From an uncultured Oscillospiraceae bacterium (lineage in GTDB: Bacteria > Bacillota_A > Clostridia > Oscillospirales > Oscillospiraceae), in the NCBI GenBank assembly GCA_944386965.1, contig CALXDE010000124.1:1-21360 (forward strand): a DNA stretch of 21,360 bases, written 5' to 3'. Made by a program: the position numbers and the translations under genes. Below are positions 348-21,360 of this stretch, one piece after another (positions within the stretch are counted from its first letter, which is position 1; every line of letters begins with the position of its first letter). The notes beneath the pieces were generated by a model. The model did not search any database. It had not been told where the DNA came from and saw only the letters and a program-made list of their open reading frames with translations.

Positions 348-368
348 GTTCCGCCTTCCGTCCCGCGA

Positions 369-403: not shown

Positions 404-418
404 TCTCCGGGACGCGGA

Positions 419-448: not shown

Positions 449-475
449 GAGAGGCAGGGAAAGGGGGGACCACCC

Positions 476-3185: not shown

Positions 3186-3369
3186 ACAAAGCATTCTCCT
3201 TCCCGGATGCCGGCCGGGCGGAGACAGCAAAGGGGGAGAGCGCCGCCCCATGGCAACACTCCCCCCTCTTCTGCCCGCTTCCTGTGCCGCTCCCCACATC
3301 AGTCTATGGCGGCGGCAGGGAAAGTAGTCCTGTCTGCCTTCGGGCGGGCCGTCCGAAGGCGCTGTACCC

Positions 3370-3650: not shown

Positions 3651-4832
3651 TCAGCGGGCGGCGGTGTAGATGGCCAGCATATCCGCCCGGTGGAGCACCT
3701 TCATCTTGCCCAGGTTGTCGTTGGCGGTGGCGCTGCACTTGTCCGCCAGCTCCTCCAGCTGCGCGTCGGTGATTTCGGCGCCCACCAGATCGTGGATATT
3801 GATGGGCATGCGGATGGATTGGAAGAATTCCTCCATGGCGGCGATGCCCAGCAGGGCAGTCTCCTCATCCGTTCCGGCGGGCCGCACCCCCAGCACGTTC
3901 ACCGCCAGCTTGGCAAAGCGGTCCGGGCGCTCCCGGTAGACATACCGGGCCCAGCTGCCCCAGATGGCCGCCAGCCCCGCGCCGTGGGCCACGTCGAACA
4001 TGCCGCCCAGCTCGTGCTCCATGCGGTGGGTGGCCCAGTCGCCCCCGTCGCTGCCGCAGCCGGTGAGGCCGTTGTGGCTGAGGCTGCTGGCCCACATGAC
4101 CTCCGCCCGGGCGTCATAATTCTTGGGATCATCCCGCAGAATCACCGCGTCCTTCATCACCGTGCGCAGCAGGCCCTCGGCCAGGGCGTCGGTGAGCTCC
4201 ATGGTGTCGTCGTGGCCCAGATAGCGCTCCATGGTGTGCATCATGATGTCCGTGCAGCCGCTGGCGGTCTGGTAGTCCGGCAGGGTGATGGTCCGCTCCG
4301 GGTTCATCACGGCAAACTTGGGCCGGCAGATGTCGTTGTTGTAGCCCCGCTTGCTCCAGCCCTCCTCATTGGTGATGACGGAGGAGTTGCTCATCTCGCT
4401 GCCCGCCGCGGCGATGGTCAGCACCGCCCCCACCGGGAAGCATGCCGTTGGCACGCGCTTGCCGCAGTAGATGTCCCACACATCCCCCTCGTTGGCCAGG
4501 CCATAGGCGATGGCCTTGGAGGAATCGATGACGCTGCCGCCGCCCACGGCCAGGATGAAGTCCACCCCCTCCGCCTTGCACAGGCGGATGCCCTCGTACA
4601 CCAGGCTCAGCCGGGGGTTGGGCACCACGCCGCCCAGAGTGACATAGGCGACCCCCGCCGCCTCCAGCGAGGCGGCCACCGTGTCCAGCAGCCCCGAGCG
4701 CTTGGCGCTGCCGCCGCCGTAGTGGATGAGCACCTTTTTGCAGCCCTGCTCACGGACCAGGGCGCCGATCTGGGACTCCGCCTCCCGGCCAAAGACCACC
4801 TTGGTCGGGGTGTAGTAGGTAAAATCATGCAT
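3651..4832 (-). CDS. Iron-containing alcohol dehydrogenase (butanol dehydrogenase-like)
   Basis: A 393-residue group III alcohol dehydrogenase (PF00465) resembling the NAD(P)H-dependent butanol dehydrogenases; it would reduce an aldehyde to an alcohol, or the reverse, in the cytoplasm. The opening YYTPTKVVFG is typical of this branch. The nucleotide-binding GGGS motif is at 97-100, followed by VIDSSKAIA. The four metal ligands are all present with correct spacing: Asp195, His199, His269 and His283 (in the context HELGGMFDVAHGAGLA). The ATG at 4832 follows GGGAGG with 8 nt spacing; the frame extends to 4895 but that extension overlaps the promoter. The DUF1653 gene follows 6 nt downstream. In an amino-acid fermenter the enzyme would serve to reoxidise reduced cofactor. 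The exact substrate is unknown. Confidence 0.94.
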   Translation of the reverse strand: MHDFTYYTPTKVVFGREAESQIGALVREQGCKKVLIHYGGGSAKRSGLLDTVAASLEAAGVAYVTLGGVVPNPRLSLVYEGIRLCKAEGVDFILAVGGGSVIDSSKAIAYGLANEGDVWDIYCGKRVPTACFPVGAVLTIAAAGSEMSNSSVITNEEGWSKRGYNNDICRPKFAVMNPERTITLPDYQTASGCTDIMMHTMERYLGHDDTMELTDALAEGLLRTVMKDAVILRDDPKNYDARAEVMWASSLSHNGLTGCGSDGGDWATHRMEHELGGMFDVAHGAGLAAIWGSWARYVYRERPDRFAKLAVNVLGVRPAGTDEETALLGIAAMEEFFQSIRMPINIHDLVGAEITDAQLEELADKCSATANDNLGKMKVLHRADMLAIYTAAR

Positions 4833-4865
4833 AGGACATACCTCCCTGTTGGATAGATTGTCTCT

Positions 4866-4895
4866 AGTATATACCAGGATTTCCCCCTGACGCAA
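4866..4895 (-). promoter_or_regulatory. Probable promoter of the alcohol dehydrogenase-DUF1653 unit
   Basis: On the minus strand TTGCGT (4890-4895) and TATACT (4866-4871) are 18 bp apart, and the -10 box lies 33 nt before the start codon. It faces away from the dpaL promoter about 50 bp further on, forming a divergent control region. Confidence 0.5.
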
Positions 4896-4947: not shown

Positions 4948-4975
4948 TTGACTTCCGCTCCAGGTGTGATATGAT
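4948..4975 (+). promoter_or_regulatory. Promoter of dpaL
   Basis: TTGACT (4948-4953) and TATGAT (4970-4975) are separated by 16 bp, and a TG dinucleotide at 4967-4968 makes it an extended -10 element. It lies about 58 bp before the dpaL start. The AT-rich leader 4980-5020 shows no clear hairpin. Confidence 0.7.
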
Positions 4976-5033
4976 ATCGGCGGATTCAAACAAAAAATTA
5001 GTCATACATAAAAATTTTGAGAGGAGTGGAACC

Positions 5034-6251
5034 ATGAAGCAGGAATCCATCCGCTGGGTGGACAACCACATGCCCGCCAGCGAGGACAAGAATCTCGCCA
5101 TCATGTCCCTGAACAACGTGGCCAAGGCCCGCTTCTTCCACAGCAGCTTTCCTCAGTACTCTGTCACCCCCCTGGCCCGGCTGGACGGGATGGCCAAATA
5201 CCTGGGACTGGGGGGCCTGTTTGTCAAGGATGAGTCCTACCGCTTCGGGCTCAACGCCTTCAAGGTCCTGGGGGGCTCCTTTGCCATGGCCCGGTACATC
5301 GCCCATCAGATGGGCCGGCATGTCTCAGAGATGACCTACGACTACCTCACCAGCGAGGAGCTGCAGCAGGAATTCGGACAAGCTACCTTCTTTACCGCTA
5401 CCGACGGCAACCACGGCCGGGGCGTGGCCTGGGCCGCCAACAAGCTGCGCCAGAAGGCCGTGGTCCACATGCCCAAGGGCTCCAGCCAGGCCCGCTTCGA
5501 CAACATCGCCAGGGAGGGTGCCCAGGTCACCATCGAGGACGTGAACTACGACGACTGCGTCCGCATGGCCGCCGCCGAGGCCGCCCAAACCAAGCACGGC
5601 GTCATCGTCCAGGACACCGCCTGGCCCGGGTATGAGGAGATCCCCGCCTGGATCATGCAGGGATACGGCACCATGGCCGCCGAGGCCGCCGAACAGCTGC
5701 GGCAGATGGAGATCAACCGCCCCACCCACATCTTTGTCCAGGCAGGCGTGGGAAGTCTGGCCGGGGCGGTGGTGGGCTACTTTGCCAATCTCTTCCCCTC
5801 CGCGCCCCCCAAGTTCATCGTCATGGAGGCCCGGGCGGCGGACTGCCTGTACCAGGGCGCCCTGGCCGGGGACGGCCAGCCCCGGAAGGTGGAGGGGGAT
5901 CTGAAGACCATCATGGCGGGGCTGGCCTGCGGAGAGCCCAACACCATCTCCTGGGACATTCTGCGCAACCACGTCTCCGCCTTTGTCTCCTGTCCGGACT
6001 GGGTCAGCGCCCGGGGCATGCGGATGCTGGGCGTGCCGGTGAAGGGGGACCCCACGGTGATTTCCGGGGAATCCGGCGCCGTGGGCATGGGCCTCATTGC
6101 CGCGCTGATGGAGACGGACCAGTACAGGGATCTGCGGGACTATCTGGAGCTGGACCGGTTCAGTCAGGTGCTGCTGTTCTCCACCGAGGGCAACACCGAC
6201 CCCATGAAGTTCCGAAAGGTGCTCTGGGACGGGGAGTATGCCACGGCATAA
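5034..6251 (+). CDS. dpaL: Diaminopropionate ammonia-lyase
   Basis: A PLP enzyme of fold type II (EC 4.3.1.15) that breaks 2,3-diaminopropionate into pyruvate and two ammonia. The 405-residue length fits the family. The PLP lysine is Lys77 within SYRFGLNAFKVLGG; the catalytic aspartate matching E. coli Asp120 is Asp124 in TDGNHGRGVAWAA, and VQDTAW at 192-197 holds Asp194. Other family blocks are IMQGYGTMAAEA, QAGVGSLAGAVVGY, MAGLACGEPN and ISGESGAVG. GAGGAG at 5021-5026 sets the start at 5034; the longer frame from 4971 begins inside the -10 box. In Enterobacteria this gene (ygeX) sits in a purine/amino-acid catabolic cluster, but here it stands alone, divergent from an alcohol dehydrogenase. 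The natural source of its substrate in this organism is not shown by the neighbourhood. Confidence 0.96.
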   Translation: MKQESIRWVDNHMPASEDKNLAIMSLNNVAKARFFHSSFPQYSVTPLARLDGMAKYLGLGGLFVKDESYRFGLNAFKVLGGSFAMARYIAHQMGRHVSEMTYDYLTSEELQQEFGQATFFTATDGNHGRGVAWAANKLRQKAVVHMPKGSSQARFDNIAREGAQVTIEDVNYDDCVRMAAAEAAQTKHGVIVQDTAWPGYEEIPAWIMQGYGTMAAEAAEQLRQMEINRPTHIFVQAGVGSLAGAVVGYFANLFPSAPPKFIVMEARAADCLYQGALAGDGQPRKVEGDLKTIMAGLACGEPNTISWDILRNHVSAFVSCPDWVSARGMRMLGVPVKGDPTVISGESGAVGMGLIAALMETDQYRDLRDYLELDRFSQVLLFSTEGNTDPMKFRKVLWDGEYATA

Positions 6252-6487: not shown

Positions 6488-8263
6488 TCAGATCTGCACG
6501 CCCTCGAACTGACTGTTGTAGAGCTTGGCGTAGAACCCGTTTTGGGCCATCAGCTCGTCGTGGCGGCCCTGTTCGACGATGCGGCCGTCCCGCATCACCA
6601 GAATCACATCCGCCTCCCGGATGGTGGAGAGCCGGTGGGCCACGATGAAGCTGGTGCGCCCGGCCATCATCTGGCCGAAGGCGTCCTGAATCTTCAGCTC
6701 CGTGCGGGTGTCGATGGAGCTGGTGGCCTCGTCCAGGATCAGCATGGGGGGCAGATAGAGCATGACCCGGGCGATGCACAGCAGCTGCTTCTGGCCCTGG
6801 CTGAGATTCCCGCCGTCCTCGGAGACGACGCTGTCATAGCCGCCGGGCAGGCGCTTGATAAAGCTGTGGGCATGGGCGCGCTTGGCCGCGGCGATGATCT
6901 CCTCCTCCGTGGCGTCCGGCCGGCCATAGGCGATATTCTCCCGGATGGTGCCGGACTTGAGCCAGGTATCCTGGAGGACCATGCCGTAGCTCCGGCGCAG
7001 GGCGTGGCGCTTCAGGGCGCGGATGTCGCGGCCGCTGACGGCGATGGTGCCGCCGTCCACATCGTAAAAGCGCATGAGGAGGTTGATGAGGGTGGTCTTG
7101 CCGCAGCCTGTGGGACCCACGACAGCGACGTGCTGACCGGGCCGCACATGGAGGTTGAAGTCCTCGATGAGGGGCCGGTCCGCCTCGTAGCGGAAGGCGA
7201 CATGGCTCAGGTCCACCGCGCCGGAAACCTCCTCGGCGGGGAGGTCCAGGGCGTCGGCGCCGTCGGGGATCTCCTCCGCCTCGTCCAGCAGCTCAAAGAG
7301 CCGCCCGGCGCAGGTCAGGGCGTTCTGCAGCTCCGTCACCACACCGGAGATCTCGTTGAAGGGCTTGGTGTACTGGTTGGCGTACCCCAGGAAGCTGGTG
7401 AGATTGCCCACAGTAATCGCGCCGTTCACCGCGAACACCGCCCCGGCGATGGCCACCCCGGCGTAGACCATGCTGTTGACAAAGCGGGTGACGGGGTTGG
7501 TGAGACTGCTGTAGAACACGGCCCGGAGGCTGGCGTGCTGGAGGCGGCCGTTGATCTCGTCGAACCGCTCCACGTTGTTTCGCTCCTGGCCGAAGGCCTG
7601 GACCACCTTCTGCCCCTCGATCATCTCGCTGACCAGGGCTGTCTGCTCGCCGCGGATCTCGCTCTGGCGGCGGAAGTACTTCTCGCTGTGGGTGGCGATG
7701 AAGGCGGCGGTGAAGATGCTCAGGGGCGTGATGACCACCACCACCAGGGTGATGGGCACGTTGAGGTAGAGCATGAAGGCCAGGGTGCCCAGAATGGTCA
7801 GCACCCCGCTGAACAGCTGGGTAAAGCCCATGAGCAGGCCGTCGGAGAACACGTCCACATCGGCGATGACCCGGCTCACCAGATCCCCGGTGGGGTGAGC
7901 GTCCAGGTACTTGAGGGGCAGGACCTGGATTTTGCGGATGGCCGCGTTGCGCAGGTCCCGGCTGACACAGAAGGTCATGCGGTTGTTGCACTCGTTCATG
8001 CCCCACTGGGCCACCGCCGTGATCCCCACGGAGATGGCGATGGCGCTCAAAATCTCCAGCAGGGCCGGAAAGTCCACCTGGCCCGCCCCCAGCATCTCGT
8101 CGATGGCGTTGCCGGTGAGCACCGGTACCAGCAGCTGCGTCCCCACGCTCACCGCCGCCAGCACCAGGCTCAGGGCCAGAAATACCCAGTAGCGCCGGAT
8201 GCTTCCCAGCACCCGCAGCACCACAGCCTTGTTGACCGCTCTCTGCTTCTGTTTCGCGCTCAT
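6488..8263 (-). CDS. Heterodimeric ABC exporter, subunit with canonical ATPase site
   Basis: A 591-residue half-exporter: six-helix membrane domain (about residues 20-320) followed by an ATPase domain (about 350-585). Walker A is GPTGCGKT (383-390), the signature is the variant LSQGQ (487-491), Walker B is LILDEATSSID with catalytic Glu512, and the H-loop is His543. It resembles BmrD/YheH-type subunits. The start ATG at 8263 overlaps the stop of the upstream partner by 4 nt (ATGA), and GAGGAGG lies about 9 nt upstream, so both subunits should be made together by translational coupling. With its partner at 8260-10002 it would form one export pump in the membrane. Substrate is unknown; drugs, lipids or peptides are all possible for this family. 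Confidence 0.94.
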   Translation of the reverse strand: MSAKQKQRAVNKAVVLRVLGSIRRYWVFLALSLVLAAVSVGTQLLVPVLTGNAIDEMLGAGQVDFPALLEILSAIAISVGITAVAQWGMNECNNRMTFCVSRDLRNAAIRKIQVLPLKYLDAHPTGDLVSRVIADVDVFSDGLLMGFTQLFSGVLTILGTLAFMLYLNVPITLVVVVITPLSIFTAAFIATHSEKYFRRQSEIRGEQTALVSEMIEGQKVVQAFGQERNNVERFDEINGRLQHASLRAVFYSSLTNPVTRFVNSMVYAGVAIAGAVFAVNGAITVGNLTSFLGYANQYTKPFNEISGVVTELQNALTCAGRLFELLDEAEEIPDGADALDLPAEEVSGAVDLSHVAFRYEADRPLIEDFNLHVRPGQHVAVVGPTGCGKTTLINLLMRFYDVDGGTIAVSGRDIRALKRHALRRSYGMVLQDTWLKSGTIRENIAYGRPDATEEEIIAAAKRAHAHSFIKRLPGGYDSVVSEDGGNLSQGQKQLLCIARVMLYLPPMLILDEATSSIDTRTELKIQDAFGQMMAGRTSFIVAHRLSTIREADVILVMRDGRIVEQGRHDELMAQNGFYAKLYNSQFEGVQI

Positions 8264-10002
8264 GCGGACTCGCCTCCTCTCTGGAACTGGCTGTCGTAGA
8301 TCTCCCGGTATACCTCGCAATGCTCCAGCAGCTGCTGATGGCTGCCAAGGCCCGCCTGATGGCCGTCCTCCAGCACCAGGATCTCATCGGCGTGCTGGAG
8401 ACTGGAGGTGCGCTGGCTGACGATGACCACCGTCAGATCCCCGGGCAGGGCCTTCAGGGCCTTGCGCAGGGCGGCGTCGGTGGCAAAATCCAGGGCGCTG
8501 GCACTGTCGTCCAGAATCAGGATGTCCGGCTTCTTCACCAGGGCCCGGGCAATGGTCAGGCGCTGGCGCTGGCCGCCGGAGAGATTCCGCCCGCCCTGTT
8601 CCACCGCCTCGTCCAGGCCCAGGGGCCGCTGCCGGACGAAGTCCGCGGCCTGGGCCGTCTCCAGGGCCGCCCACAGTTCCTCGTCCGTGGCGTTTTCGTT
8701 GCCCCAGAGGAGGTTGGAGCGGATGGTGCCGGAGAAGAGCTGGGCCCGCTGGGGCACCACGCCCACCACCGCCCGCAGCTGCTCCCGGGGATAGTCCTGG
8801 ATGGGACGGCCGAAGAGACGCACCTGACCCTGGGTGGCGTCGTAAAACCGGGGGATCAGGTTCACCACGCTGGACTTTCCGCTGCCGGTGCCGCCGATAA
8901 TGCCGAAGGTCTGTCCCCGGCGGATGGAGAAGGAGATGCCCTGGAGACTCTCGCCGTCGGCGTCAGCGTAGGTGAGAGCCACGTTCTCAAAGCCCAGGGC
9001 CTCCTGGCCAGCGCGCTCGGCCGGCTGCTCCGGGAAGGTCATCCGGGGCTCCAGCTCCAGCACCGACTGAATCCGGCTGGTGCAGGCCAGGGCCTTGGAT
9101 ACCAGGACGATGGTGTTGGCCAGCTTCACCAGCTCCACCAGGATCTGGCTCATGTAGTTGATGAGGGCGTAGACATCGCCGCTGAGGAGGACGCCGCCCT
9201 CCACCTGCTGGCCGCCCACGTACAGCACCGCCACCGCCGCCAGATTCACCACCACATAGGTCATGGGATTCATCAGCGCGGAAAGGCGGCCCACCGCCAG
9301 CTGGATGTGGGTCAGGCGCTGGTTCTCCTGATAGAACTGCCGCTCCTCCTGCTCCTCCCGTCCAAAGGCCCGGACCACCCGGACGCCGGTGAGGTTCTCC
9401 CGGGTCAGACGCAGCACCCGGTCCAGCTGCCCCTGGGTCTTTTTATACCGGGGGCTGGTCAGGCGCATGATGCCGAAGACGATTAGGCTGAGCAGGGGCA
9501 CCGTGGCCACAAATACCATCGCCGCCCGGGTGTCGATGGTGAAGGCCATCACCACGCTGCCCAGCACGATGAAGGGGGAGCGCAGGAACAGGCGCAGCGC
9601 CATGTTCAGCCCGTTCTGCACCTGGTTGATGTCGCTGGTGAGGCGGGTGATCAGGGTGCTGCCTCCCAGCGTGTCCATCTGGGAGAAGTCCAGGGTCTGG
9701 ATGTGCTGGTAGAGGGTGTGGCGCATGGAGGTGGCGCAGGCAATGGCCGCCTGGGCCGCGAACCACTGGGCCGTGATGGAGCAGGCCAGCCCCACCACTC
9801 CCAGCAGTACCAGCAGGCCGCAGCAGCGCAGGATAAAGCCCGTGTCCCCCTGGTTGATGCCCACGTTGATGATCTCCGCCACCACCAGGGGGACCAGCAG
9901 GTCGAACAGGGCCTCCAGCAGCTTGAACAACGGCGCCAGGATGCTCTGCCGCCAGAACCCATCCAGGTACCGGAGCAGGCCGCGCCCCTTTTTTGCCTTC
10001 AT
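8260..10002 (-). CDS. Heterodimeric ABC exporter, subunit with degenerate ATPase site
   Basis: A 580-residue half-exporter and first gene of the two-gene operon. The membrane domain spans about residues 15-320. Walker A GGTGSGKS is at 370-377 and the signature is canonical LSGGQ (474-478). Walker B reads LILDDS, so the catalytic glutamate is replaced by Asp499, and the H-loop histidine is replaced by Gln530 in VSQRTSS. Together with the LSQGQ signature of the partner this makes one of the two composite ATP sites degenerate, the established arrangement in heterodimeric exporters such as BmrCD and TM287/288. The ATG at 10002 has GAGGTG about 8 nt upstream; the frame extends to 10065 but that part covers the promoter. 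It is transcribed divergently from the LysR regulator. Confidence 0.94.
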   Translation of the reverse strand: MKAKKGRGLLRYLDGFWRQSILAPLFKLLEALFDLLVPLVVAEIINVGINQGDTGFILRCCGLLVLLGVVGLACSITAQWFAAQAAIACATSMRHTLYQHIQTLDFSQMDTLGGSTLITRLTSDINQVQNGLNMALRLFLRSPFIVLGSVVMAFTIDTRAAMVFVATVPLLSLIVFGIMRLTSPRYKKTQGQLDRVLRLTRENLTGVRVVRAFGREEQEERQFYQENQRLTHIQLAVGRLSALMNPMTYVVVNLAAVAVLYVGGQQVEGGVLLSGDVYALINYMSQILVELVKLANTIVLVSKALACTSRIQSVLELEPRMTFPEQPAERAGQEALGFENVALTYADADGESLQGISFSIRRGQTFGIIGGTGSGKSSVVNLIPRFYDATQGQVRLFGRPIQDYPREQLRAVVGVVPQRAQLFSGTIRSNLLWGNENATDEELWAALETAQAADFVRQRPLGLDEAVEQGGRNLSGGQRQRLTIARALVKKPDILILDDSASALDFATDAALRKALKALPGDLTVVIVSQRTSSLQHADEILVLEDGHQAGLGSHQQLLEHCEVYREIYDSQFQRGGESA

Positions 10003-10032
10003 GCGCAACACCTCGCAAGTTTCTTGCTTTTT

Positions 10033-10060
10033 ATTATACCATCCCTCTTGATAAATGCAA
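10033..10060 (-). promoter_or_regulatory. Promoter of the ABC exporter operon
   Basis: On the minus strand TTGCAT (10055-10060) and a perfect TATAAT (10033-10038) are 16 bp apart, about 31 nt before the start codon at 10002. It interlocks with the promoter of the divergent LysR gene. Confidence 0.75.
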
Positions 10061-10076
10061 TTCATTGAATTAGAAT
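10048..10076 (+). promoter_or_regulatory. Probable LysR-gene promoter overlapping a LysR-type operator
   Basis: TTGATA (10048-10053) and TAGAAT (10071-10076) are 17 bp apart on the plus strand. Over them lies the inverted repeat ATTC-N9-GAAT (10060-10076), which contains the T-N11-A core (T10062, A10074) typical of LysR-type binding sites. It abuts the -35 box of the divergent exporter promoter, so one bound regulator could act on both directions. Confidence 0.5.
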
Positions 10077-10109: not shown

Positions 10110-11006
10110 ATGGACTTGAAACAGATCCGCTATTTCATCGAGGTGGTGGAGCAGGGCAGCATCAACATGGCCGCCCACAGGCTGGGCATGACCCAGCCCC
10201 CGGTGAGCAAGCAGATGCAGCTGCTGGAGCAGGAGCTGGGCTGTGAGCTGTTCCGGCGCAGCAGCCGTCCCCTGGAGCTGACGCCGGAGGGAAAGGTGTT
10301 CTATGAGCGGGGCTCCGCCCTGCTGGCCATGGCCCAGGGGGTGGTGCAGGCGGTGGCCGACTGCCGGAACACCCAGGGGGGCACGCTGCACCTGGGGCTG
10401 GTGAGCAGTGTCAGCGAGATGGCGGTCCAGCGGTGGATCGCCCCCTTCGGGCAGCAGCACCCCGGCGTGGACTTCGCCCTGTATGAGGACAACACCTATG
10501 CCCTGCTGGAGCAGCTGCGCCGCCGGGCCTTCGACCTGGCATTGGTGCGCACTCCCTTCTCCTCCCGCGGGCTGCTCACCCAGATGCTCCCCCCCCAGCC
10601 CATGCTGGCCATCTGGCATCCGGACCACTGGACGCTGACGCCGGAGGGGGGCAGGCTGTCCCTGGCCCAGCTGGCCGAGTGCCCCCTGGTGCTCTACCGC
10701 CGGTGGGAGCCCATCATCCAGTCCGCCTTCGACCGGCACGGGCTGCAGCCCCGGTCCATCGCCCGGGACGACAGCGCCCGGACCTGCCTGGCCCTGGCCC
10801 GGGCTGGCCTCGGGGTGGCCATGGAGCCGGACACCATGCGCCAGCCCGCCCTGGAGGCCGGGCTGGCCGCCGCGGAGATCGACGAGCCCACACTGTACAG
10901 CCGGATCGCCCTGGTGTGCAACGAGGGGGGGTGCGACACGGCGGCGGGGCGTGCCTTCTGGGACTTCTACCGCCAGTGCCCGGCACAGCCGGTCCCCGAC
11001 GTCTGA
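10110..11006 (+). CDS. LysR family transcriptional regulator
   Basis: A 298-residue DNA-binding regulator. The N-terminal winged helix-turn-helix is plain: MDLKQIRYFIEVVEQGSINMAA, then RLGMTQPPVSKQMQLLEQELGCELFRRSSRPLELTPEG (residues 1-60). A linker helix and a periplasmic-binding-protein-like effector domain (about 90-290) follow. AAGGTG lies about 5 nt before the ATG. It is divergent from the ABC exporter operon and upstream of the peptide importer unit on the same strand. A T-N11-A dyad lies in the shared divergent promoter. Family practice is control of the divergent operon plus autoregulation, so the exporter is the first-choice target; control of the importer operon is also possible. 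The effector is unknown. Confidence 0.94.
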   Translation: MDLKQIRYFIEVVEQGSINMAAHRLGMTQPPVSKQMQLLEQELGCELFRRSSRPLELTPEGKVFYERGSALLAMAQGVVQAVADCRNTQGGTLHLGLVSSVSEMAVQRWIAPFGQQHPGVDFALYEDNTYALLEQLRRRAFDLALVRTPFSSRGLLTQMLPPQPMLAIWHPDHWTLTPEGGRLSLAQLAECPLVLYRRWEPIIQSAFDRHGLQPRSIARDDSARTCLALARAGLGVAMEPDTMRQPALEAGLAAAEIDEPTLYSRIALVCNEGGCDTAAGRAFWDFYRQCPAQPVPDV

Positions 11007-11379: not shown

Positions 11380-12321
11380 ATGCGAAGATATATCATCAAA
11401 CGGATCCTGCTGATGCTGCTGCTCCTGCTGGGCATGAGCTTCATCGTGTTCGCCAGCCTCTACATCGCCCCCGGCGACCCGGCGGCCATGGTGGCCGGGC
11501 CCAGCGCCACCACTGAGGACATCGAGGCGGTGCGGGTGAGCCTGGGGCTGGACCGGCCCTTCCTGGTCCAGTACCTGATCTATCTGCGCAACCTGCTCAC
11601 CCTGGACCTGGGCACCTCCTACACCTCCCGCCAGCCCATCCTGGATGAGATCCTGGTGCGGCTGCCCAACACGCTGAACCTGGCCTGCGCCAGTATGATC
11701 CTGGCCGTTTTGGTGGGCATCCCCTGCGGCATCATCACCGCCCTGAAGAAGGACAAGCTCACCGACAATGTCCTGACCACCTTCTCCCTGGTGGGCATCT
11801 CAATCCCCAACTTCCTGCTGGGCACGGTCCTGATGTACATCTTCGCCGTCCGGCTGGAGCTGCTTCCCACCGGCGGCATGACCCATTATTTCTGGACGCC
11901 CACCGGGTTCCGGCAGGCCATCCTCCCGGCCATCGCCCTGAGCACCGGCACCATCGCCAGCTTCACCCGCATCGGCCGCTCCGCCATGCTGGACGTGCTC
12001 CAGTCCGACTACATCCGGACCGCCAAGAGCAAGGGGCTCAAGCAGAAGACCATCATCGGCATCCACGCCCTGCGCAACGCCCTCATCCCCCTGGTGACCC
12101 AGTTCGGCACCAGCTTCGGCGGCCTGCTGGGGGGCGCCATCATCACCGAGCAGGTCTTTGTCATCAACGGCGTGGGCACCTACCTCATCTCGGCCATCAA
12201 CAACCGCAACTACCCGGTGGTCCAGAGCACCGTGCTGGTCATCGCCACCCTGTTCATCCTGATCAACCTGGTGGTGGACATCCTGTACTGCGTGATCGAC
12301 CCGCGCATCAGCTACGAATAA
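11380..12321 (+). CDS. Peptide ABC importer permease, DppB/OppB-like
   Basis: A 313-residue inner-membrane permease (BPD_transp_1, with the DppB/OppB N-terminal region). It begins with MRRYIIKRILLMLLLLLGMSFIVFASL, the typical first helix, then the periplasmic-side segment with APGDPA. The cytoplasmic EAA loop that contacts the ATPases reads DYIRTAKSKGLKQKTIIGIH followed by LRNALIPLVT. It ends ILYCVIDPRISYE, the normal family end. It is the first gene of the operon B-C-A-D-F-hydrolase, and the second permease starts 13 nt later. With that protein it forms the membrane channel for substrate imported from the binding protein at 13311-14918. Related GsiC (glutathione) and NikB (nickel) permeases look alike, so peptides are the likely but not proven cargo. 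Confidence 0.94.
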   Translation: MRRYIIKRILLMLLLLLGMSFIVFASLYIAPGDPAAMVAGPSATTEDIEAVRVSLGLDRPFLVQYLIYLRNLLTLDLGTSYTSRQPILDEILVRLPNTLNLACASMILAVLVGIPCGIITALKKDKLTDNVLTTFSLVGISIPNFLLGTVLMYIFAVRLELLPTGGMTHYFWTPTGFRQAILPAIALSTGTIASFTRIGRSAMLDVLQSDYIRTAKSKGLKQKTIIGIHALRNALIPLVTQFGTSFGGLLGGAIITEQVFVINGVGTYLISAINNRNYPVVQSTVLVIATLFILINLVVDILYCVIDPRISYE

Positions 12322-12334
12322 GGAGGGGACTGCA

Positions 12335-13258
12335 ATGGATGAAAACAACAAGCACGGACATCCGGTCCGCGCCGCCTTCCAAAAGCTGCTGCAGAACAAG
12401 CTGGCCACCATCTGCTTCGTCATCCTGATCCTGGAGGTCATCCTGGTGGCCCTGGCCCCGGTCATCGCCCCCTACGGCTATGACGACCAGGACCCGTCCA
12501 TCCGCCTGCGGCCCGGCTTCTGGGCCCAGTGGACGGCGGTGACCGACCCCAACGACCCCAACTATGACGAGAACGAGCTCTATGTCCCCGGCCACCTGCT
12601 GGGCACGGACGACTACGGCCGGGACAACCTCTCCCGCCTGCTGTACGGCGGGCGGATCTCCCTGATGGTGGGCTTCGTGTCCACGGCGATGGGCCTGGTG
12701 GTGGGGGTGATCTGCGGGCTGCTGGCCGGCTACTACAAACGGCTGGACAACCCCATCATGCGGGTGATGGACCTGCTGTTCACCTTCCCGGGGATCCTGC
12801 TGGCCATGCTGATCATCGCCATGCTGGGCAACAGCACCTTCAACGCCACGGTGGCCATCAGCATCTGGTCCATCCCCTCCTTTGCCCGCATGGTCCGGGG
12901 CAAGGTGCTCCAGATCAAGGAGGAGGACTATATCCTGGCCACCCGCTCCCTGGGGGCCAAGGACTCCCGCATCATCTTCGTCCACATCCTGAAAAACTGC
13001 CTGCCGGTGATCATCGTCATCGCCACCATGCGCATGGCCACCTCTATCATCTCCATCTCCACCCTGAGCTATCTGGGCATGGGCGTCACGCTCCCCATTC
13101 CGGAGTGGGGCAACATGATCTCCACCGGCAAGCAGTACCTCTGGGACCGGCCCAGCCTGATCTTCATCCCCGGCATCGCCGTCATGATCACGGTGATCTG
13201 CTTCAACATCCTGGGGGACAAGCTCCGGGACATCCTGGACCCCAGCCTGAGAGACTGA
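12335..13258 (+). CDS. Peptide ABC importer permease, DppC/OppC-like
   Basis: A 307-residue second permease. The N-terminal HPVRAAFQKLLQNKLATICF segment with its first helix and the LGTDDYGRDNLSRLLYGGRISL block (about residues 89-110) are hallmarks of OppC/DppC/GsiD. The EAA loop reads DYILATRSLGAKDSRIIFVH then ILKNCLPVIIV. The C-terminus GDKLRDILDPSLRD is the standard family end. AAGGAGGGG just upstream provides the ribosome binding site. It pairs with the permease encoded at 11380-12321. The segment between residues about 50 and 85, containing FWAQWTAVTDPNDPNYDENE, is a somewhat long extracytoplasmic stretch but within family range. Confidence 0.94.
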   Translation: MDENNKHGHPVRAAFQKLLQNKLATICFVILILEVILVALAPVIAPYGYDDQDPSIRLRPGFWAQWTAVTDPNDPNYDENELYVPGHLLGTDDYGRDNLSRLLYGGRISLMVGFVSTAMGLVVGVICGLLAGYYKRLDNPIMRVMDLLFTFPGILLAMLIIAMLGNSTFNATVAISIWSIPSFARMVRGKVLQIKEEDYILATRSLGAKDSRIIFVHILKNCLPVIIVIATMRMATSIISISTLSYLGMGVTLPIPEWGNMISTGKQYLWDRPSLIFIPGIAVMITVICFNILGDKLRDILDPSLRD

Positions 13259-13310: not shown

Positions 13311-14918
13311 ATGAAAACCTGGAAGAAGCTCTTGAGTATCGCCGCAGTCTTTGCCCTGGCCGCCAGTCTGCTGGCCGGCTGCAGCGGCACCACCACCCCC
13401 ACCAGCGCCGACCCTGACGGCGGCGCCAGCTCGGACGCCCAGGGCGCCGACGGCGGGATGTTCAACATCGCCCTGACCGCCACCTTCACCGGCTTCGACC
13501 CCCTGCGCACCAACGACTCCGCCTCCACCTACATCAATGCCCAGATCTATGAGACCCTCTACCGCATCGATCCCGAGACCGGGGAGTACGTCCCCCTGCT
13601 GGCCGAGTCCCTCCCCGAATACTCTGACGACGGCCTGACCGTCACCATCAAGCTGCGGGAGGGCGTCACCTTCCAGGACGGCACCCCCTTCAACGCTGAG
13701 GCCGTGATGTACACCTTTGATCTGATCCGCGACCCCGACTTCGGCTCCGCCCGGGCCTCCATCGCCAGCTCCATCGACACCATGGAGTGCCCCGACGAGT
13801 ATACCATCGTGTTCCACCTGCTCTATGAGGACGGCGTGTTCACCGCCAAGCTGGCCCACACCAACTCCGCCATCGTCTCCCCCACCGCCCAGCAGAACCA
13901 GGACCTGATGGTGGAGCCCTGCGGCACCGGCCCCTATCAGTTCGTCTCCTCCGTGTCCGGGTCCAATGTGGTGCTCACCCGGTATGACGGCTACTGGGGG
14001 GAGGCGCCCGCCATCAAGGACGTCACCATGACCGTCATCACCGACGAGTCCACCGCCGTGTCCCGGATGGAGACCGGCGAGGCCGACTTCATGCCCAAGA
14101 TCAGCGTGGAGCAGCTCAGCCGGGTGGAAAACAACTCCAGCCTGACTGTGGCCACCTCCGAGGCTGCCGCCATCTACTACCTGGGCATGCGGGCCGACTC
14201 CTCCGCCAACCCCATCATGGCGGAGAAGGACTTCCGCACCGCCATCGCCAAGGCCATCGACAAGGAGGGCTTCGTGGAGTATATGCTGCAGGGCTACGCC
14301 GAGGTGGCCAACTCCATCCTGGGCCCCACCATCACCGGATACGACCCCGAGGCCGAGACCCACAACATCGCCTACGACCCCGAGGGGGCCAGGGCCATCC
14401 TGGACGCCCACCCCGGCTGGGCCGATGAGGAGATCCTCCTCCTGGCCGCCTCCACCCCCACCTATGCCCGGATGGCTGAGTATTTCCAGTCCAACCTGTC
14501 CGACGCCGGCTTCAACAACGTGCGCATCGAGACCCTGGACTGGTCCGCCTGGCTCACCGAGAGCCAGACCGCGAACCGCTTTGACATCACCGTGTACGGC
14601 TGGTCCAACGTCACCCGGGACGGCACCGAGCTCATGGAGCCCAACTTCCACTCCGTCAACGGCCAGCACCGCATGTATCTGACCGCCGAGGACGCCGCCC
14701 TGCTGGACAGCTACATCGACGCCAGCAAGACCACCTCGGACATGGCGGTGCGCACGGAGAACCTGCTGGCCGCCAACGCCCTGCTGATGGACGGGGCCTA
14801 TGTCCAGCCCATCTACAACTCCACCAACCTGTTCTGCTACAACAGTGAGTACACCAACATCACCCTGGATGCCGGCGGCGCCTTCTACATCTCCGACTTC
14901 CAGTACGCCGCCAACTGA
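13311..14918 (+). CDS. Peptide-binding lipoprotein of the importer (SBP family 5)
   Basis: A 535-residue extracellular solute-binding protein (PF00496) anchored to the membrane as a lipoprotein. The signal peptide has the charged start MKTWKK, a hydrophobic core and the lipobox LLAGC, with Cys24 as the lipidated residue; a low-complexity Ser/Thr/Gly/Asp linker follows. Family blocks include TFTGFDPLRTNDSASTYINA, LTVTIKLREGVTFQDGTPFN and the GTGPYQFV region; AKAIDKEGFVEYMLQGYA is in the second half. AAGGAGA about 7 nt before the ATG gives the ribosome binding site. It delivers substrate to the two permeases encoded upstream. Two strong hairpins follow the gene (14935-15034), which may keep its transcript level above that of the ATPase genes. 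Peptide length or type cannot be deduced. Confidence 0.94.
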   Translation: MKTWKKLLSIAAVFALAASLLAGCSGTTTPTSADPDGGASSDAQGADGGMFNIALTATFTGFDPLRTNDSASTYINAQIYETLYRIDPETGEYVPLLAESLPEYSDDGLTVTIKLREGVTFQDGTPFNAEAVMYTFDLIRDPDFGSARASIASSIDTMECPDEYTIVFHLLYEDGVFTAKLAHTNSAIVSPTAQQNQDLMVEPCGTGPYQFVSSVSGSNVVLTRYDGYWGEAPAIKDVTMTVITDESTAVSRMETGEADFMPKISVEQLSRVENNSSLTVATSEAAAIYYLGMRADSSANPIMAEKDFRTAIAKAIDKEGFVEYMLQGYAEVANSILGPTITGYDPEAETHNIAYDPEGARAILDAHPGWADEEILLLAASTPTYARMAEYFQSNLSDAGFNNVRIETLDWSAWLTESQTANRFDITVYGWSNVTRDGTELMEPNFHSVNGQHRMYLTAEDAALLDSYIDASKTTSDMAVRTENLLAANALLMDGAYVQPIYNSTNLFCYNSEYTNITLDAGGAFYISDFQYAAN

Positions 14919-15062: not shown

Positions 15063-16040
15063 ATGGAAAAAGTGCTCGAGGTAAAGGATCTGGTCACCAC
15101 CTTCCGGATCGGGAAGCAGGAATATGAGGTCCTTCGGGGCATATCCTTTGATATCCACGCCAACGAGACAGTGTGTATGGTGGGCGAGTCCGGCTGCGGC
15201 AAAAGCGTCACCACCCTGTCCATCATGGACCTTCTGCCCAACAACGGCCGGGTGGTCTCCGGGAGCATCAAGCTCAATGGCCAGGAGCTCACCACCCTGC
15301 CCCACAAAGCGCGCAACGCCCTGCGGGGCAAGCAGATGGGGATGATCTTCCAGGAGCCCATGACCGCCCTCAACCCCTTGCTGACCATCGGCCGCCAGCT
15401 GACGGAGGGCCTGCGGCTCCACCTGGGGATGAACAAGGCGGAGGCCTACCAGACGGCGCTGTCCTATCTGGAGAAGGTGGGCATCGCCAACCCGGAGGCC
15501 CGGATGAAGCAGTATCCCTTCCAGCTCTCCGGCGGCCTGCGCCAGCGCATCATGATCGCCATGGTCATGGCTGTCCAGCCCAGCCTGCTCATCGCCGACG
15601 AGCCCACCACCGCCCTGGACGTGACCATCCAGAAGCAGGTGCTGGTGCTGCTCAACAAGCTGAAAAAGGACGTGAGCACCGGGGTGCTCTTCATCACCCA
15701 CGACCTGGGGGTGGTGGCGGAGATCGCCGACCGGGTCATCATCCTCTACTCCGGCCGCAAGGTGGAGGAGGGGAGCATCGAGGCCATCTTCGCCCACCCC
15801 ATGCACCCCTATACCATCGGGCTGATGGACGCGGTCCCCAACGTGGACGAGGACGACTATGACATCCGGCCCATCCCCGGCACCTTCCCCAATATCACAG
15901 AGGACATCGGCGGCTGCCGGTTCCACCCCCGCTGCCCCTATGCCAGCGAACGCTGCCGCACCCAGGTCCCGGCAGAGCTGGAGGTGGAGCCGGGCCACTT
16001 CGTAAGCTGCCACAAAGTGGAGGAGGAGCGCAGGACATGA
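15063..16040 (+). CDS. Peptide ABC importer ATPase, DppD/OppD-like
   Basis: A 325-residue cytoplasmic ATPase. Walker A GESGCGKS is at 41-48, the Q-loop glutamine is Gln97 in MIFQEPMTALNP, the signature is LSGGLRQR (155-162), Walker B is LLIADEPTTALD with Glu180, and the H-loop is His213. The C-terminal oligopeptide/dipeptide transporter extension carries four cysteines (Cys285, 291, 298 and 316); such cysteine clusters bind iron-sulphur in some Dpp/Opp ATPases, so a cluster is a reasonable inference. The signature has Leu where most relatives have Met or Gln. AAGGAGG and a second GGAGG precede the ATG. The next ATPase gene overlaps its stop by 4 nt (ATGA), so the two are translationally coupled. 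Confidence 0.95.
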   Translation: MEKVLEVKDLVTTFRIGKQEYEVLRGISFDIHANETVCMVGESGCGKSVTTLSIMDLLPNNGRVVSGSIKLNGQELTTLPHKARNALRGKQMGMIFQEPMTALNPLLTIGRQLTEGLRLHLGMNKAEAYQTALSYLEKVGIANPEARMKQYPFQLSGGLRQRIMIAMVMAVQPSLLIADEPTTALDVTIQKQVLVLLNKLKKDVSTGVLFITHDLGVVAEIADRVIILYSGRKVEEGSIEAIFAHPMHPYTIGLMDAVPNVDEDDYDIRPIPGTFPNITEDIGGCRFHPRCPYASERCRTQVPAELEVEPGHFVSCHKVEEERRT

Positions 16041-17617
16041 GCGAAGAGAGAAAGGTGCTTCTGGAGCTCAAGAAGCTGAAAAAATATTTCCCCGTCCGCC
16101 GCGGCGTGAGCGTCAAGGCCCTGGAGGACGTGACGTTTTCCATCTACGAGGGGGAGAAGTTCGGCGTGGTGGGCGAGTCCGGCTGCGGCAAGTCCACCCT
16201 GGGCCGGGTGATCCTCCAGCTCTACCCCCAGACCAGCGGGGCCTGCATCTACTACGGACGCACCCGGGACGAGATGTGCCCCAAGTACCTGGCCAAGGAG
16301 GTGGCCAAGCTGCCGGAGTACCAGCGCAGGGCCACCGAGTTCTACCAGAAGTCCCTGGAGGTGGATCGGAAGGCGGAGGCCCTGCGCCGGGAGATCGACG
16401 CCCTCTCCGCCCTGGGCACCGACAAGGAGGTGAAAAAGGAGGCCAGCCTCCAAAAGCGGCTGAGCGAGCTGGAGTTCCGCTCCAAGGAGCTGCGCAAGGA
16501 CGCCTCTCGCCAGCTCCGGGAGGGGTCGCGCACTGTGGGCTCCCTCATCCTCTGCAGGGACCTGCCCGCGGTCCAGGAGCTGTTCAGCAAGGCCCAGAAG
16601 GAGACGGCGGCCGCCTCCGCGGCCATCGAGGCCTTCCGGGAGCTGGAGAAGAAATACGAGCAGAGCAGGCTGTCCGGCGCGCCGGACGAGGCCCTCGCCC
16701 AGAAGATGGAGGAGGCCCGCAGCCAGGCCGCCGGCCATGTGGAGGCCTCCCGCGGCTACCGCCTGGAGGCGTTCCGCACCTACCGGGGCAAGGACATCCT
16801 CCCCATCACTGAGCGGACCCTGGACCCGGAATACCAGGCCAAGCTGGACCGCAACTATGAGACGGGCATCAACCTGGGCAAGCTGACCCGGGAAGAGATG
16901 CGGGGCATGCGCCGGGAGATGCAGATGATCTTCCAGGACCCCGCCGCCAGCCTGGACCCCCGGCAGTCCATCGGCAAGTCCATCGAGGAGGTCTATGTCA
17001 TCAACACTGACTACCCCGCCGCCGTGCGCAAGGAGAAGGTGATGGAGCTGCTGGAGCAGGTGGGCCTCAAGCGGGAGCACTACTGCTCTTACCCCCACGC
17101 CCTGTCCGGCGGACAAAAGCAGCGGGTGGGCATCGCCCGGGCCATCGCCCTGGACACCAAGTTCATCGTGCTGGACGAGTCGGTGTCCGCCCTGGACGTG
17201 TCGGTCCAGGCCCAGATCCTCCAGCTCCTGGGGGAACTGAGCGAGGAGAAGCATCTGACCTACTTCTTCATCACCCACGACCTGGGCGTGGTCAAGCACT
17301 TCTGCGACCGCATCCTGGTGATGTATCTGGGCAATGTCTGCGAGCTGGCGGACAGCAAGGAGCTGTTCCACCACCCCCTCCACCCCTACACCGAGTCCCT
17401 GCTGGCCGCTGTGCCCCGGCTGAAGATCGGCCAGGAGCACTCCACCGAATCCGTGCTGGAGGGCGACGTGCCCAGCGCCATGGACCCCCCCAAGGGCTGC
17501 CCCTTCCACACCCGCTGCGCCAAGTGCATGGACATCTGTGCCCAGGAGAAGCCGCCGGTGGTGGAAAAGGCCCCGGGCCACTTCGTGGCCTGCCACCTGT
17601 ACGACAACAAAACTTAA
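16037..17617 (+). CDS. Peptide ABC importer ATPase, DppF/OppF-like, with ~200-residue internal insertion
   Basis: A 526-residue ATPase, far longer than the usual 320-340. The normal parts are all present: the N-terminal KKLKKYFPVRRGV, Walker A GESGCGKS (46-53), Q-loop Gln300 in MIFQDPAASLDPR, signature LSGGQKQR (356-363), Walker B FIVLDES with Asp380 and Glu381, H-loop His414, and the C-terminal extension with Cys488, 494, 497, 501 and 519, a possible iron-sulphur site. The extra length lies between Walker A and the Q-loop: Lys52 to Gln300 is 248 residues, while E. coli DppF has 45 by my count. The insertion (about 75-283) is highly charged and looks helical or coiled-coil. No frame break or composition change marks its edges. 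Paired with the ATPase encoded just upstream, it should still hydrolyse ATP for import. Confidence 0.93.
   Translation: MSEERKVLLELKKLKKYFPVRRGVSVKALEDVTFSIYEGEKFGVVGESGCGKSTLGRVILQLYPQTSGACIYYGRTRDEMCPKYLAKEVAKLPEYQRRATEFYQKSLEVDRKAEALRREIDALSALGTDKEVKKEASLQKRLSELEFRSKELRKDASRQLREGSRTVGSLILCRDLPAVQELFSKAQKETAAASAAIEAFRELEKKYEQSRLSGAPDEALAQKMEEARSQAAGHVEASRGYRLEAFRTYRGKDILPITERTLDPEYQAKLDRNYETGINLGKLTREEMRGMRREMQMIFQDPAASLDPRQSIGKSIEEVYVINTDYPAAVRKEKVMELLEQVGLKREHYCSYPHALSGGQKQRVGIARAIALDTKFIVLDESVSALDVSVQAQILQLLGELSEEKHLTYFFITHDLGVVKHFCDRILVMYLGNVCELADSKELFHHPLHPYTESLLAAVPRLKIGQEHSTESVLEGDVPSAMDPPKGCPFHTRCAKCMDICAQEKPPVVEKAPGHFVACHLYDNKT
16259..16885 (+). other. Coding segment for the helix-rich insertion in the DppF/OppF-like ATPase
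   Basis: This in-frame segment encodes residues of roughly 75-283 that have no counterpart in standard OppF/DppF. Runs such as DRKAEALRREIDAL, LQKRLSELEFRSKELRKD and FRELEKKYEQS have the charge pattern of amphipathic helices. A more ordinary stretch SRTVGSLILCRDLPAV (164-179) interrupts them. The segment ends just before LTREEMRGMRREMQMIFQ, where normal family sequence resumes. Boundaries are by eye and could shift by about ten residues. Confidence 0.75.
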
Positions 17618-19327: not shown

Positions 19328-19846
19328 TCAGCGGGATATCTGTCCCTGCGCTGCCAGCGTCTCCAGCAGCCCCCGGCAGCCCGCCTCCACGTCCCGCCAA
19401 GTGGCGTCGAAGTCCCCGGTGTACCAGGGGTCAGCCACCTCGTCGAAGCAATGGCCCAGGCCCCCTTCGCTGGGCTCCCGCTGGGACCCCTTCCGGCGGC
19501 CGGCGTAGTCCAGCAGGAGGTGGATCTTTCCATCCGGGTCACCGCCGCAGATGCGGCCCATGTTGCGGATGTTGGCCCGGTCCATGCCGATGAGCAGGTC
19601 GTACCTCCCGTAGTCCTCCCGCCGGAGCTGCCGGGCCGTCTTGCCGTCGCAGCTGATGCCGTGCTCGGCAAGCTTCCGCCGGGCGGGCGGGTAGACGGGG
19701 TTGCCGATCTCCTCCGTGCTGGTGGCGGCGGAGGAGATGTGGAACTGCCCAGCCAGCCCGGCTTTGGCCACCAGGTCCTTCATCGCGAATTCCGCCATGG
19801 GACTGCGGCAGATGTTGCCGTGGCACACGAACAATACACGCACCAT
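19328..19846 (-). CDS. Low-molecular-weight protein-tyrosine phosphatase
   Basis: A 172-residue cytoplasmic phosphatase (PF01451). The P-loop CX5RS reads CHGNICRS with nucleophile Cys8 and Arg14, and the general-acid aspartate is Asp139 in DPWYTGDF. Both are at the expected ends of the domain. Protein-arginine phosphatases such as YwlE have Thr at the position occupied here by Ile12; Ile is usual in tyrosine phosphatases, so phosphotyrosine is the better guess. The start at 19846 is preceded by a G-rich site (GGGGGGGAG) about 5 nt upstream; the frame to 19981 lies beyond the promoter. It stands alone, convergent with the importer operon. No tyrosine kinase gene is visible in the window. Confidence 0.94.
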   Translation of the reverse strand: MVRVLFVCHGNICRSPMAEFAMKDLVAKAGLAGQFHISSAATSTEEIGNPVYPPARRKLAEHGISCDGKTARQLRREDYGRYDLLIGMDRANIRNMGRICGGDPDGKIHLLLDYAGRRKGSQREPSEGGLGHCFDEVADPWYTGDFDATWRDVEAGCRGLLETLAAQGQISR

Positions 19847-19882
19847 CTTTTCTCCCCCCCTTCTCAGGTCATAGTCCCGTCT

Positions 19883-19891
19883 ATCATACCA
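19883..19891 (-). promoter_or_regulatory. Extended -10 promoter of the phosphatase gene
   Basis: On the minus strand TGGTATGAT forms an extended -10 element 37 nt before the start codon. No good -35 box is present at the right distance, which is common for extended -10 promoters. The rest of 19892-20051 holds GC-rich dyads (for example GGGGCGGC at 19936-19943 with GCCGCCCC at 19956-19963) and no gene. Confidence 0.45.
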
Positions 19892-20051
19892 CATGGGGCC
19901 GGAGATCCCCACTGTCGATCGTTCCAGAAATGCGCGGGGCGGCGGCAGGAGTTTTGCCGCCCCTTGATCTCCTATCTGCAAAGGCAGGTGGGGCGGCGGC
20001 GCTTATGCGCCGGTCATCGCCACCGCCCGCCGGCCCGGCCGGCTTTGCTGT

Positions 20052-20889: not shown

Positions 20890-21360
20890 TCAGCCCATGG
20901 CGCTGAGCTGTTCCTCCAGCTTGGCGATCAGGGCCCTGAGCTTCTCCGCCCGGTCGCGCTCCCCGGCCACCACGGCCTCGGGGGCCTTGTTCAAAAAGCC
21001 GGGGTTGGAGAGCTTGGCCTCCAGGCCCTTGAGCTCCCCCTGCTTCTTGCCCAGGTCCTTCTGGAGCCGGGCCTTTTCCTTGGCAATGTCCACCAGCTCG
21101 GCCAGGGGCAGGTAGGCCTTGGCCATGTGGGTGACGTCGCACACCATCCCGGCGGTATCCGTCAGGTCGTCTCCCTGGACGGTGACGGAGGAGCACCAGG
21201 CCAGCCGCTTCAGGTGGGCCTGGCCGGCCTTAAAGATGTCCCCTGCGCTGGTGACCAGGGTGAGGGCCGCCTTCTTGGAGGGGGGCACGTTCATCTCCGC
21301 ACGGCGCGCCCGGATGGCCCGGATCACGTCCATGACGGCCTCCATGGCCTCCTTGGCCGC
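20890..21360 (-). CDS. valS: Valine--tRNA ligase, C-terminal part (5' end outside window)
   Basis: The last 156 residues of ValS, which charges tRNA-Val; the frame stays open to the right edge. The segment DVIRAIRARRAEMNVPPSKKAALTLVT belongs to the end of the anticodon-binding domain. It is followed by AYLPLAELVDIAKEKARLQKDLGKKQGELKGLEAKLSNPGFLNKAPEAVV, the antiparallel coiled-coil arm that is typical of the ValS C-terminus, and the closing RDRAEKLRALIAKLEEQLSAMG. The catalytic HIGH and KMSKS motifs are outside the window. The gene ends with a strong terminator, so it is the last gene of its unit. Confidence 0.95.
   Translation of the reverse strand, partial: AAKEAMEAVMDVIRAIRARRAEMNVPPSKKAALTLVTSAGDIFKAGQAHLKRLAWCSSVTVQGDDLTDTAGMVCDVTHMAKAYLPLAELVDIAKEKARLQKDLGKKQGELKGLEAKLSNPGFLNKAPEAVVAGERDRAEKLRALIAKLEEQLSAMG

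What the first reader, a model, noticed from the sequence alone, without database searches (positions are those of the whole stretch)
16259..16885. OppF/DppF-type ATPase with a ~200-residue charged helical insertion between Walker A and the Q-loop
Lys52 (Walker A) to Gln300 (Q-loop) spans 248 residues where E. coli DppF has 45 by my count. All catalytic motifs outside the insertion are intact and the frame is unbroken. The insertion lies where an ABC ATPase meets its own helical subdomain, so it could project into the cytoplasm and contact the partner ATPase, the hydrolase encoded next, or a regulator. I cannot exclude that clostridial relatives carry a similar insertion; I know of no assigned function.
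Basis: partly seen in the sequence, partly recalled or inferred. Interest (0 to 1): 0.72.

Follow-up and report, generated by a model that had tools for sequence, protein, structure and literature searches.

The report
Peptide-importer ATPase with helical arm
A gut bacterium's peptide-importer motor protein carries an extra, separately folding bundle of four helices that the same importer lacks in Bacillus-type bacteria, so nature offers with-arm and without-arm versions for finding out what the arm does.

Summary
ORF 16037-17617 (+) is a 526-residue OppF/DppF ATPase with 248 residues from Walker A Lys52 to Q-loop Gln300, against 44-50 in ordinary OppF relatives. The extra ~206 residues (71-276) are confidently predicted as four long helices. 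They also fold alone (pLDDT 91, pTM 0.82) and have no convincing structural match. The insertion sits in the beta-hairpin before the Q-loop, not in the helical subdomain.

It is a conserved family: 236 proteins match at E 0.001 or better (120 listed). In all 20 loci of its clade whose contig reaches that far, the inserted OppF is followed by a gamma-glutamyltransferase (GGT), in the operon OppB-OppC-SBP-DppD-OppF-GGT. Twenty Bacillus-type loci have the same six-gene operon with an ordinary OppF. Conversely, related arms occur in importers without GGT nearby.

Best guess, inferred: a cytoplasmic docking/regulatory arm moved by OppF's ATP cycle, its nearly invariant base (residues 149-172) binding a partner common to these lineages. 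Brace and tolerated-insertion rivals stay open. New variant of a known kind.

The parts
16037..17617 (+). OppF/DppF-type ATPase, 526 aa, bearing the insertion
   Evidence: PF00005 in two stretches, PF08352; NF008453 346 bits (cut-off 408); motif residues invariant
16247..16864 (+). inserted arm, residues 71-276
   Evidence: alignment to Rv1281c NBD2; model; (piece of 219 residues folded alone, pLDDT 91.1, pTM 0.82)
16283..16408 (+). arm helix 1 (residues 83-124, break at 91)
   Evidence: DSSP of the model
16421..16552 (+). arm helix 2 (residues 129-172)
   Evidence: DSSP of the model
16481..16555 (+). nearly invariant base segment (residues 149-173, SKELRKDASRQLREGSRTVGSLILC)
   Evidence: residues 149-172 mean column entropy 0.32 bits against 0.57 for NBD residues 285-440
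16562..16672 (+). arm helix 3 (residues 176-212), variable
16688..16783 (+). arm helix 4 (residues 218-249), variable; around the turn before it the longer relatives carry about 45 extra residues
16784..16888 (+). conserved return segment (GKDILPITER...NYETGINLGKLT, residues 250-284) leading back to the hairpin and Q-loop
15063..16040 (+). partner ATPase, DppD/OppD type, 325 aa, ordinary spacing
   Evidence: 0 of 107 DppD-type NBDs long (one has 74, the rest 48-52)
13311..14918 (+). solute-binding protein SBP_bac_5, lipoprotein by eye (LLAGC); best NCBIfam hit GsiB, below its cut-off
12335..13258 (+). OppC-type permease, 307 aa, ordinary
11380..12321 (+). OppB-type permease, 313 aa
17634..19265 (+). 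gamma-glutamyltransferase; start codon chosen by eye; no signal peptide seen by eye (no predictor run)
   Evidence: PF01019 E 7.4e-157; TIGR00066 345.7 bits (cut-off 357.85)

Best explanation
Shown: OppF of this six-gene importer operon carries an independently folding (predicted) four-helix domain inserted in the ABC-beta hairpin just before the Q-loop. The domain is conserved, looks to be under purifying selection, and has homologues at the same site in another group of Firmicutes importers. Inferred: it is a cytoplasmic arm tied by both ends to the ATPase core, so it moves with ATP-driven closure of OppF against DppD. Its nearly invariant base (residues 149-172 plus 250-284) docks a cytosolic partner or signal common to these lineages, and that docking tunes or licenses import; the variable outer hairpins (helices 3-4 and the tips) are reach or spacer. 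Substrate: gamma-glutamyl peptides such as glutathione, cut inside the cell by the adjacent GGT (inferred from gene content).
For: Confident fold in context and alone. Conservation concentrated at helix 2's inner half and the return segment, exceeding part of the ATPase core. dN/dS of the insertion 0.05-0.42 in the 6 of 9 pairs where it could be computed for both regions. Long in OppF only (48 of 112 OppF-type rows, a set gathered for long ones) and in 0 of 107 partner-type rows. The same base motif is in GGT-less importers (L155; a close variant in L153), so its binding target should not be GGT. Other subunits of the GGT operon have similar open-frame lengths with and without the arm, so no matching docking extension shows in the operon.
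Against: No partner identified; no complex was modelled; coordinates and PAE were not shown to me, so which surface the base faces is unknown. The conserved base could simply pack against OppF's own core. Bacillus-type orthologous operons do without the arm. dN/dS is higher in the insertion than in the NBD in 4 of the 6 pairs.
Confidence: 0.4

Rival explanations
1. Assembly brace: the arm packs against DppD or the cytoplasmic side of OppB/OppC and stabilises the heterotetramer or sets the NBD resting distance, with no outside partner.
For: Strong conservation towards the root of the arm, where own-transporter contacts would be; arm only in the OppF of the OppD/OppF pair; E. coli DppBCDF falls apart when its Fe-S cysteines are changed (passages of PMC12136057), so assembly can be limiting.
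Against: OppB, OppC and DppD open frames of arm-bearing GGT operons are of similar length to those of arm-less ones; no complex model.
Confidence: 0.3
2. Lineage-specific insertion that is structurally tolerated, with selection acting only to keep it folded and out of the way.
For: Outer helices vary and length changes (Walker A to Q-loop spacing 191 to 424 among the long rows); orthologous operons lack it; dN/dS above that of the NBD in 4 of 6 pairs.
Against: Residues 149-172 are more conserved than NBD residues 285-440, at positions that cover all faces of the helix; R158, R161 and R165 identical in 99 of 99 sequences.
Confidence: 0.18
3. The arm docks the adjacent GGT so that imported gamma-glutamyl peptides are handed straight to it.
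For: 20 of 20 arm-bearing loci of the GGT-linked clade, window included, have GGT after OppF (L006 is cut by its contig end and not counted).
Against: 20 Bacillus-type loci have the same operon without the arm; arms with the same or a close base motif occur without a GGT hit in the locus (L153, L155), and long OppFs of the other group show no GGT within 2.5 kb in 21 of 21 distinct loci with at least 1800 bases downstream.
Confidence: 0.06

Closest known systems
E. coli DppF/OppF (8z1v, 8z21), dipeptide/oligopeptide importer ATPase
   Different: No counterpart of residues 71-276
GGT-operon OppF of Bacillus-type bacteria (e.g. Parageobacillus, L008)
   Same: Same six-gene order; sister clade in the NBD tree (98*)
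   Different: Spacing 45, no arm; scores over the NF008453 cut-off (429.6 and 433.7 bits for L008 and L019), the window protein does not (346.2)
Long OppF of GGT-less importers in Clostridia and Bacilli (L143, L155 and others; no family model found here names them)
   Same: Insertion at the same site; arm homology strong for part of the Bacilli set (profile pieces down to E 3.4e-37), moderate for the clostridial set (hhalign 96.9%)
   Different: No GGT nearby; OppC carries RCC1 repeats in 11 of 11 scanned; arm length varies
Mycoplasma OppF model NF043078 (MMSYN1_0168, 649 positions)
   Same: Also a long OppF; four proteins of the Bacilli set (G863, G827, G875, G958) align over model positions 14/15 to 430-446
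   Different: Cut-off reached in 0 of 7 genomes; homology of the inserted part not shown
Hsp104 middle region and SMC/RecN coiled coils
   Different: Within the tool's stated chance range for helical bundles; no Foldseek match at E 0.001 or better

Membership tests
OppF/DppF peptide-importer ATPase | ABC ATPase motifs intact (Walker A, Q, signature, Walker B Glu, switch His) | tested here: met
   invariant in 99 of 99
OppF/DppF peptide-importer ATPase | oligo_HPY C-terminal region with four Fe-S cysteines | tested here: met
   PF08352 65.4 bits, cut-off 27.1; C488, C494, C501, C519, against DppF C293, C299, C306, C323 in passages of PMC12136057; cluster binding itself not tested
OppF/DppF peptide-importer ATPase | NBD fold of DppF/OppF | tested here: met
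OppF/DppF peptide-importer ATPase | Neighbouring OppD partner, two permeases and SBP | tested here: met
OppF/DppF peptide-importer ATPase | Walker A to Q-loop spacing near 45 | tested here: not met
   248 here; 59 of 64 ordinary OppF-type rows have 45, all 44-50; I treat it as a variant, not a non-member
NCBIfam NF008453 (dipeptide ABC transporter ATP-binding protein) | Score over curated cut-off 408 | tested here: not met
   346.2 bits in two stretches; arm-less GGT-operon OppFs L008 and L019 score 429.6 and 433.7
A known Pfam domain for the insertion | Pfam match within residues 71-276 | tested here: not met
   none lies within it at E 0.001; AAA_22 and AAA_16 run over from Walker A, below their cut-offs
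Hsp104 M-domain-like or SMC-like coiled coil | Structural match well above the background for helical bundles | tested here: inconclusive
Mycoplasma OppF NF043078 | Homologous insertion | tested here: inconclusive
   no cut-off reached, and N-part scores (70.6-94.9 bits) are close to that of an ordinary N-part (88.9 bits)

The most novel reading that the evidence does not exclude
A new kind of regulatory domain for ABC importers: an autonomous four-helix arm rooted in the ABC-beta hairpin of one of the two ATPases, spread among peptide importers of gut Firmicutes (possibly by recombination between the Walker A and Q-loop conserved segments), whose invariant base reads a cytosolic signal and gates peptide uptake.
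Probability: 0.28. Interest if true: 0.7.

Novelty: new variant of a known kind. Interest (0 to 1): 0.45.

Why it matters
Peptide importers are common uptake systems, and control of bacterial ABC importers from the cytoplasm is understood in few cases (recalled). Here a conserved, foldable but unannotated domain sits on the ATPase, and the same six-gene operon exists with and without it, so its role is directly testable by comparing or removing one domain. It also lowers the family-model score below the naming cut-off: 346 bits here against 430-434 for two arm-less OppFs of the same operon type.

Tried and rejected
Recombination as the origin of the arm in the GGT operon. The NBD tree without insertion columns puts the arm-bearing GGT clade (20 rows) beside an arm-less clade of 22 rows (20 with GGT; L023 and L027 without a GGT hit) at 98*, and both beside the other 28 arm-bearing rows (3 of them duplicates) at 95*. 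So a gain plus a loss, or a transfer, is needed. The N-terminal segment to 16 residues past the Walker A Lys groups the arm-bearing GGT rows with the other arm-bearing OppFs (SH-aLRT 88, 91), the C-terminal segment with the arm-less GGT clade (98 and 99). The shorter N-segment ending at Walker A recovers neither group. AU tests reject neither alternative (p 0.61 and 0.338; p 0.575 and 0.628 for the shorter segment, which used 84 of 112 rows, ordinary rows thinned to every third). Recombination is suggestive only.

Independent origin of the arms in the two importer groups: disfavoured. The A/B arm profile hits Bacilli GGT-less arms in pieces, at E down to 3.4e-37, and those OppFs lie inside the other arm-bearing clade. 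The clostridial type C link is weaker: hhalign 96.9%, 128 aligned columns within columns 1-147 of 219, the first few being NBD strand; the second half is not shown homologous.

Fold relatives: Foldseek gave no PDB match at E 0.001 or better; VIA-align rows and profile hits in the PDB at E 0.3 and worse look like chance helix matches. Rfam on the window: 0 matches at gathering threshold. Mycoplasma OppF relation: inconclusive.

Rows dropped: L153 fell out of the tree set because its C-terminal motif reads HPYS, not HPYT; L006 is cut by its contig end; one search used 113 of the 120 listed proteins (those of 500 residues or more); alignment A1 used 99 of the 100 representatives (P0115, chimeric-looking, left out); A2 and A3 used 17 of the 23 pieces printed.

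Papers: searches (OppF with insertion, insertion domain, coiled-coil, Mycoplasma; RCC1 with OppC; ABC-beta insertion; Erysipelotrichaceae) showed no paper that describes this insertion; searches listed none at all, searches listed three unrelated ones, of which I saw title and abstract start. Only open-licence PMC text is covered. Searches gave listings; PMC12136057 was read in passages only.

Full report
Observation. The window encodes on the + strand, in order, a LysR regulator (10110-11006), OppB (11380-12321), OppC (12335-13258), an SBP with a lipoprotein-like start (13311-14918), DppD (15063-16040), OppF (16037-17617) and a gamma-glutamyltransferase (to 19265). OppF is 526 residues with an unbroken frame. 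Walker A Lys52 and Q-loop Gln300 lie 248 residues apart. Pfam's ABC_tran matches in two stretches. Alignment with the second ATPase domain of Rv1281c (8j5q) pairs residue 70 with 418 and residue 277 with 422, so the insertion is residues 71-276. Catalytic and Fe-S cysteine positions are invariant in 99 of 99 homologues.

Is it unusual? Among OppD/OppF-type ATPases found by motif in L001-L090, 144 of 161 had a spacing of 40-54, one had 74 and 16 had at least 220; 6 of these 16 are second fetches of the same genes. L001-L080 are the best 80 of 571 confirmed relatives, so the sample leans towards this protein. In the larger set, 48 of 112 OppF-type and 0 of 107 DppD-type domains were long. That set was gathered for long OppFs, so 48 of 112 is not a frequency. 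The 64 ordinary OppF rows have spacing 44-50, 59 of them 45. In genome samples, the window's insertion matched 4 of 197 genomes of the order of an Intestinimonas MAG (1 full-length, the reference itself; 3 short matches to a divergent type). In its class, profile A2 (this type) matched 17 of 391 genomes (1 full-length) and profile A3 (divergent type C) 26 of 391 (16 over nearly the whole profile). In the order of an Erysipelotrichaceae MAG, A2 matched 40 of 196 genomes (14 over the whole profile or nearly so), and in its class 21 of 296.

Conservation. Residues 149-172 have a mean entropy of 0.32 bits, lower than NBD residues 285-440 (0.57) and far lower than helices 3 and 4 (2.14, 2.23). Of the 20 loci of this clade, 6 have spacing 248 (window included), 13 have 293-294 and L007 has 258; the extra stretch lies around the helix 3-4 turn. 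Nei-Gojobori dN/dS for the insertion was 0.05-0.42 in the 6 of 9 pairs where it could be computed for both regions; it was higher than in the NBD in 4 of these 6. Synonymous change is near saturation in L003-L004 and undefined in the 3 dropped pairs.

Context. All 20 arm-bearing OppF loci of this clade that reach far enough (window, L001-L005, L007, L130-L142) have GGT after OppF, with DppD, SBP, OppC and OppB before it as far as the contigs reach. L006 is cut before GGT and not counted. Of the 80 loci, 26 hold a GGT hit: the 6 arm-bearing ones and 20 Bacillus-type ones. These 20 have the same six genes in the same order with an ordinary OppF (open frames 324-381 aa against 529-598), the other subunits being of similar length. 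Conversely, the long OppFs outside this clade lack a GGT hit within 2.5 kb. Of 28 such rows (3 duplicates), the 21 with at least 1800 bases downstream are all GGT-free. Of these, L155-L157 carry arms that the A/B profile recognises strongly. L155 has the base motif KKEASRQLREGSRTVGSLIL; L153, outside that count, has a close variant. For the clostridial ones arm homology is moderate. GGT is thus neither necessary nor sufficient for the arm.

Evolution. On the NBD tree built without the insertion, the arm-bearing GGT clade (100*) is sister to the Bacillus-type clade (together 98*), and these 42 rows are sister to the 28 other arm-bearing rows (95*). One gain and one loss, or a transfer of the arm, fits. 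Segment trees hint at a crossover near the Q-loop, but AU tests do not reject a shared history. One present-day pair, P0115/P0117, is 98.7% identical up to the Q-loop and about 51% identical after it; it may be a real recombinant or an assembly chimera.

Mechanism. Shown, by sequence and prediction: an intact importer ATPase with an extra, folded, conserved domain at a peripheral hairpin. Inferred: because the domain is clamped by both strands of the hairpin it moves with the ATPase, and the invariant base, shared by importers with different neighbours, is more likely to meet something common to the host lineages or to the transporter core than the operon's hydrolase. I put 0.4 on a docking/regulatory arm, 0.3 on an assembly brace, 0.18 on a tolerated insertion and 0.06 on GGT docking. 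The glutathione/gamma-glutamyl peptide assignment rests on GGT and on GsiB being the best, below-cut-off NCBIfam hit of the SBP; it is not tested. Comparison with the Hsp104 middle region is an analogy only.

Novelty. No Pfam domain lies within the insertion, the NCBIfam hits shown are transporter ATPases, most of them split by it, and a profile of the insertion finds no PDB sequence better than E 0.3. The named paper searches found no description. It remains an OppF: a new variant of a known kind.

Noticed in passing
L094:6640-8613 (+); L143:7269-9125; L144:11443-13563; L145:6812-8806; L147:11566-13404; L149:6619-8463; L153:5185-7464; L154:4342-7788; L155:11442-13316; L166:10292-12169; L091:10988-12952: OppC permeases (open frames 613-1149 aa) carry RCC1 repeats (probable beta-propeller) between OppC_N and the permease domain: 11 of 11 scanned beside long OppFs of the GGT-less group. 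A paper search for RCC1 with OppC and permease listed nothing. L162 and L167 have a long OppF with ordinary-size OppC.
   Followed up: partly
P0115 against P0117: Two inserted OppF proteins are 98.7% identical to the Q-loop and about 51% identical after it; the C-part of P0115 is closest to ordinary OppFs among my loci. Recombinant or assembly chimera.
   Followed up: partly
L154, L159, L160 OppF: Walker A to Q-loop spacing of 418-424 residues, a size like that implied by the 649-position mycoplasma OppF model (inference).
   Followed up: partly
window 4971-6251 (+): 2,3-diaminopropionate ammonia-lyase, TIGR03528 617 bits over cut-off 532, near a Na:alanine symporter (1788-3299, -) and an iron alcohol dehydrogenase (3651-4895, -).
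   Followed up: no
window 6488-8320 and 8260-10065 (-): Two adjacent half-size ABC exporters (ABC_membrane plus ABC_tran), perhaps a heterodimer.
   Followed up: no
window 344-1150 and 1185-1679 (+); 19328-19981 and 20890-21345 (-): DUF1638 protein next to MoaC; low-molecular-weight phosphatase; C-terminal part of a valyl-tRNA synthetase.
   Followed up: no
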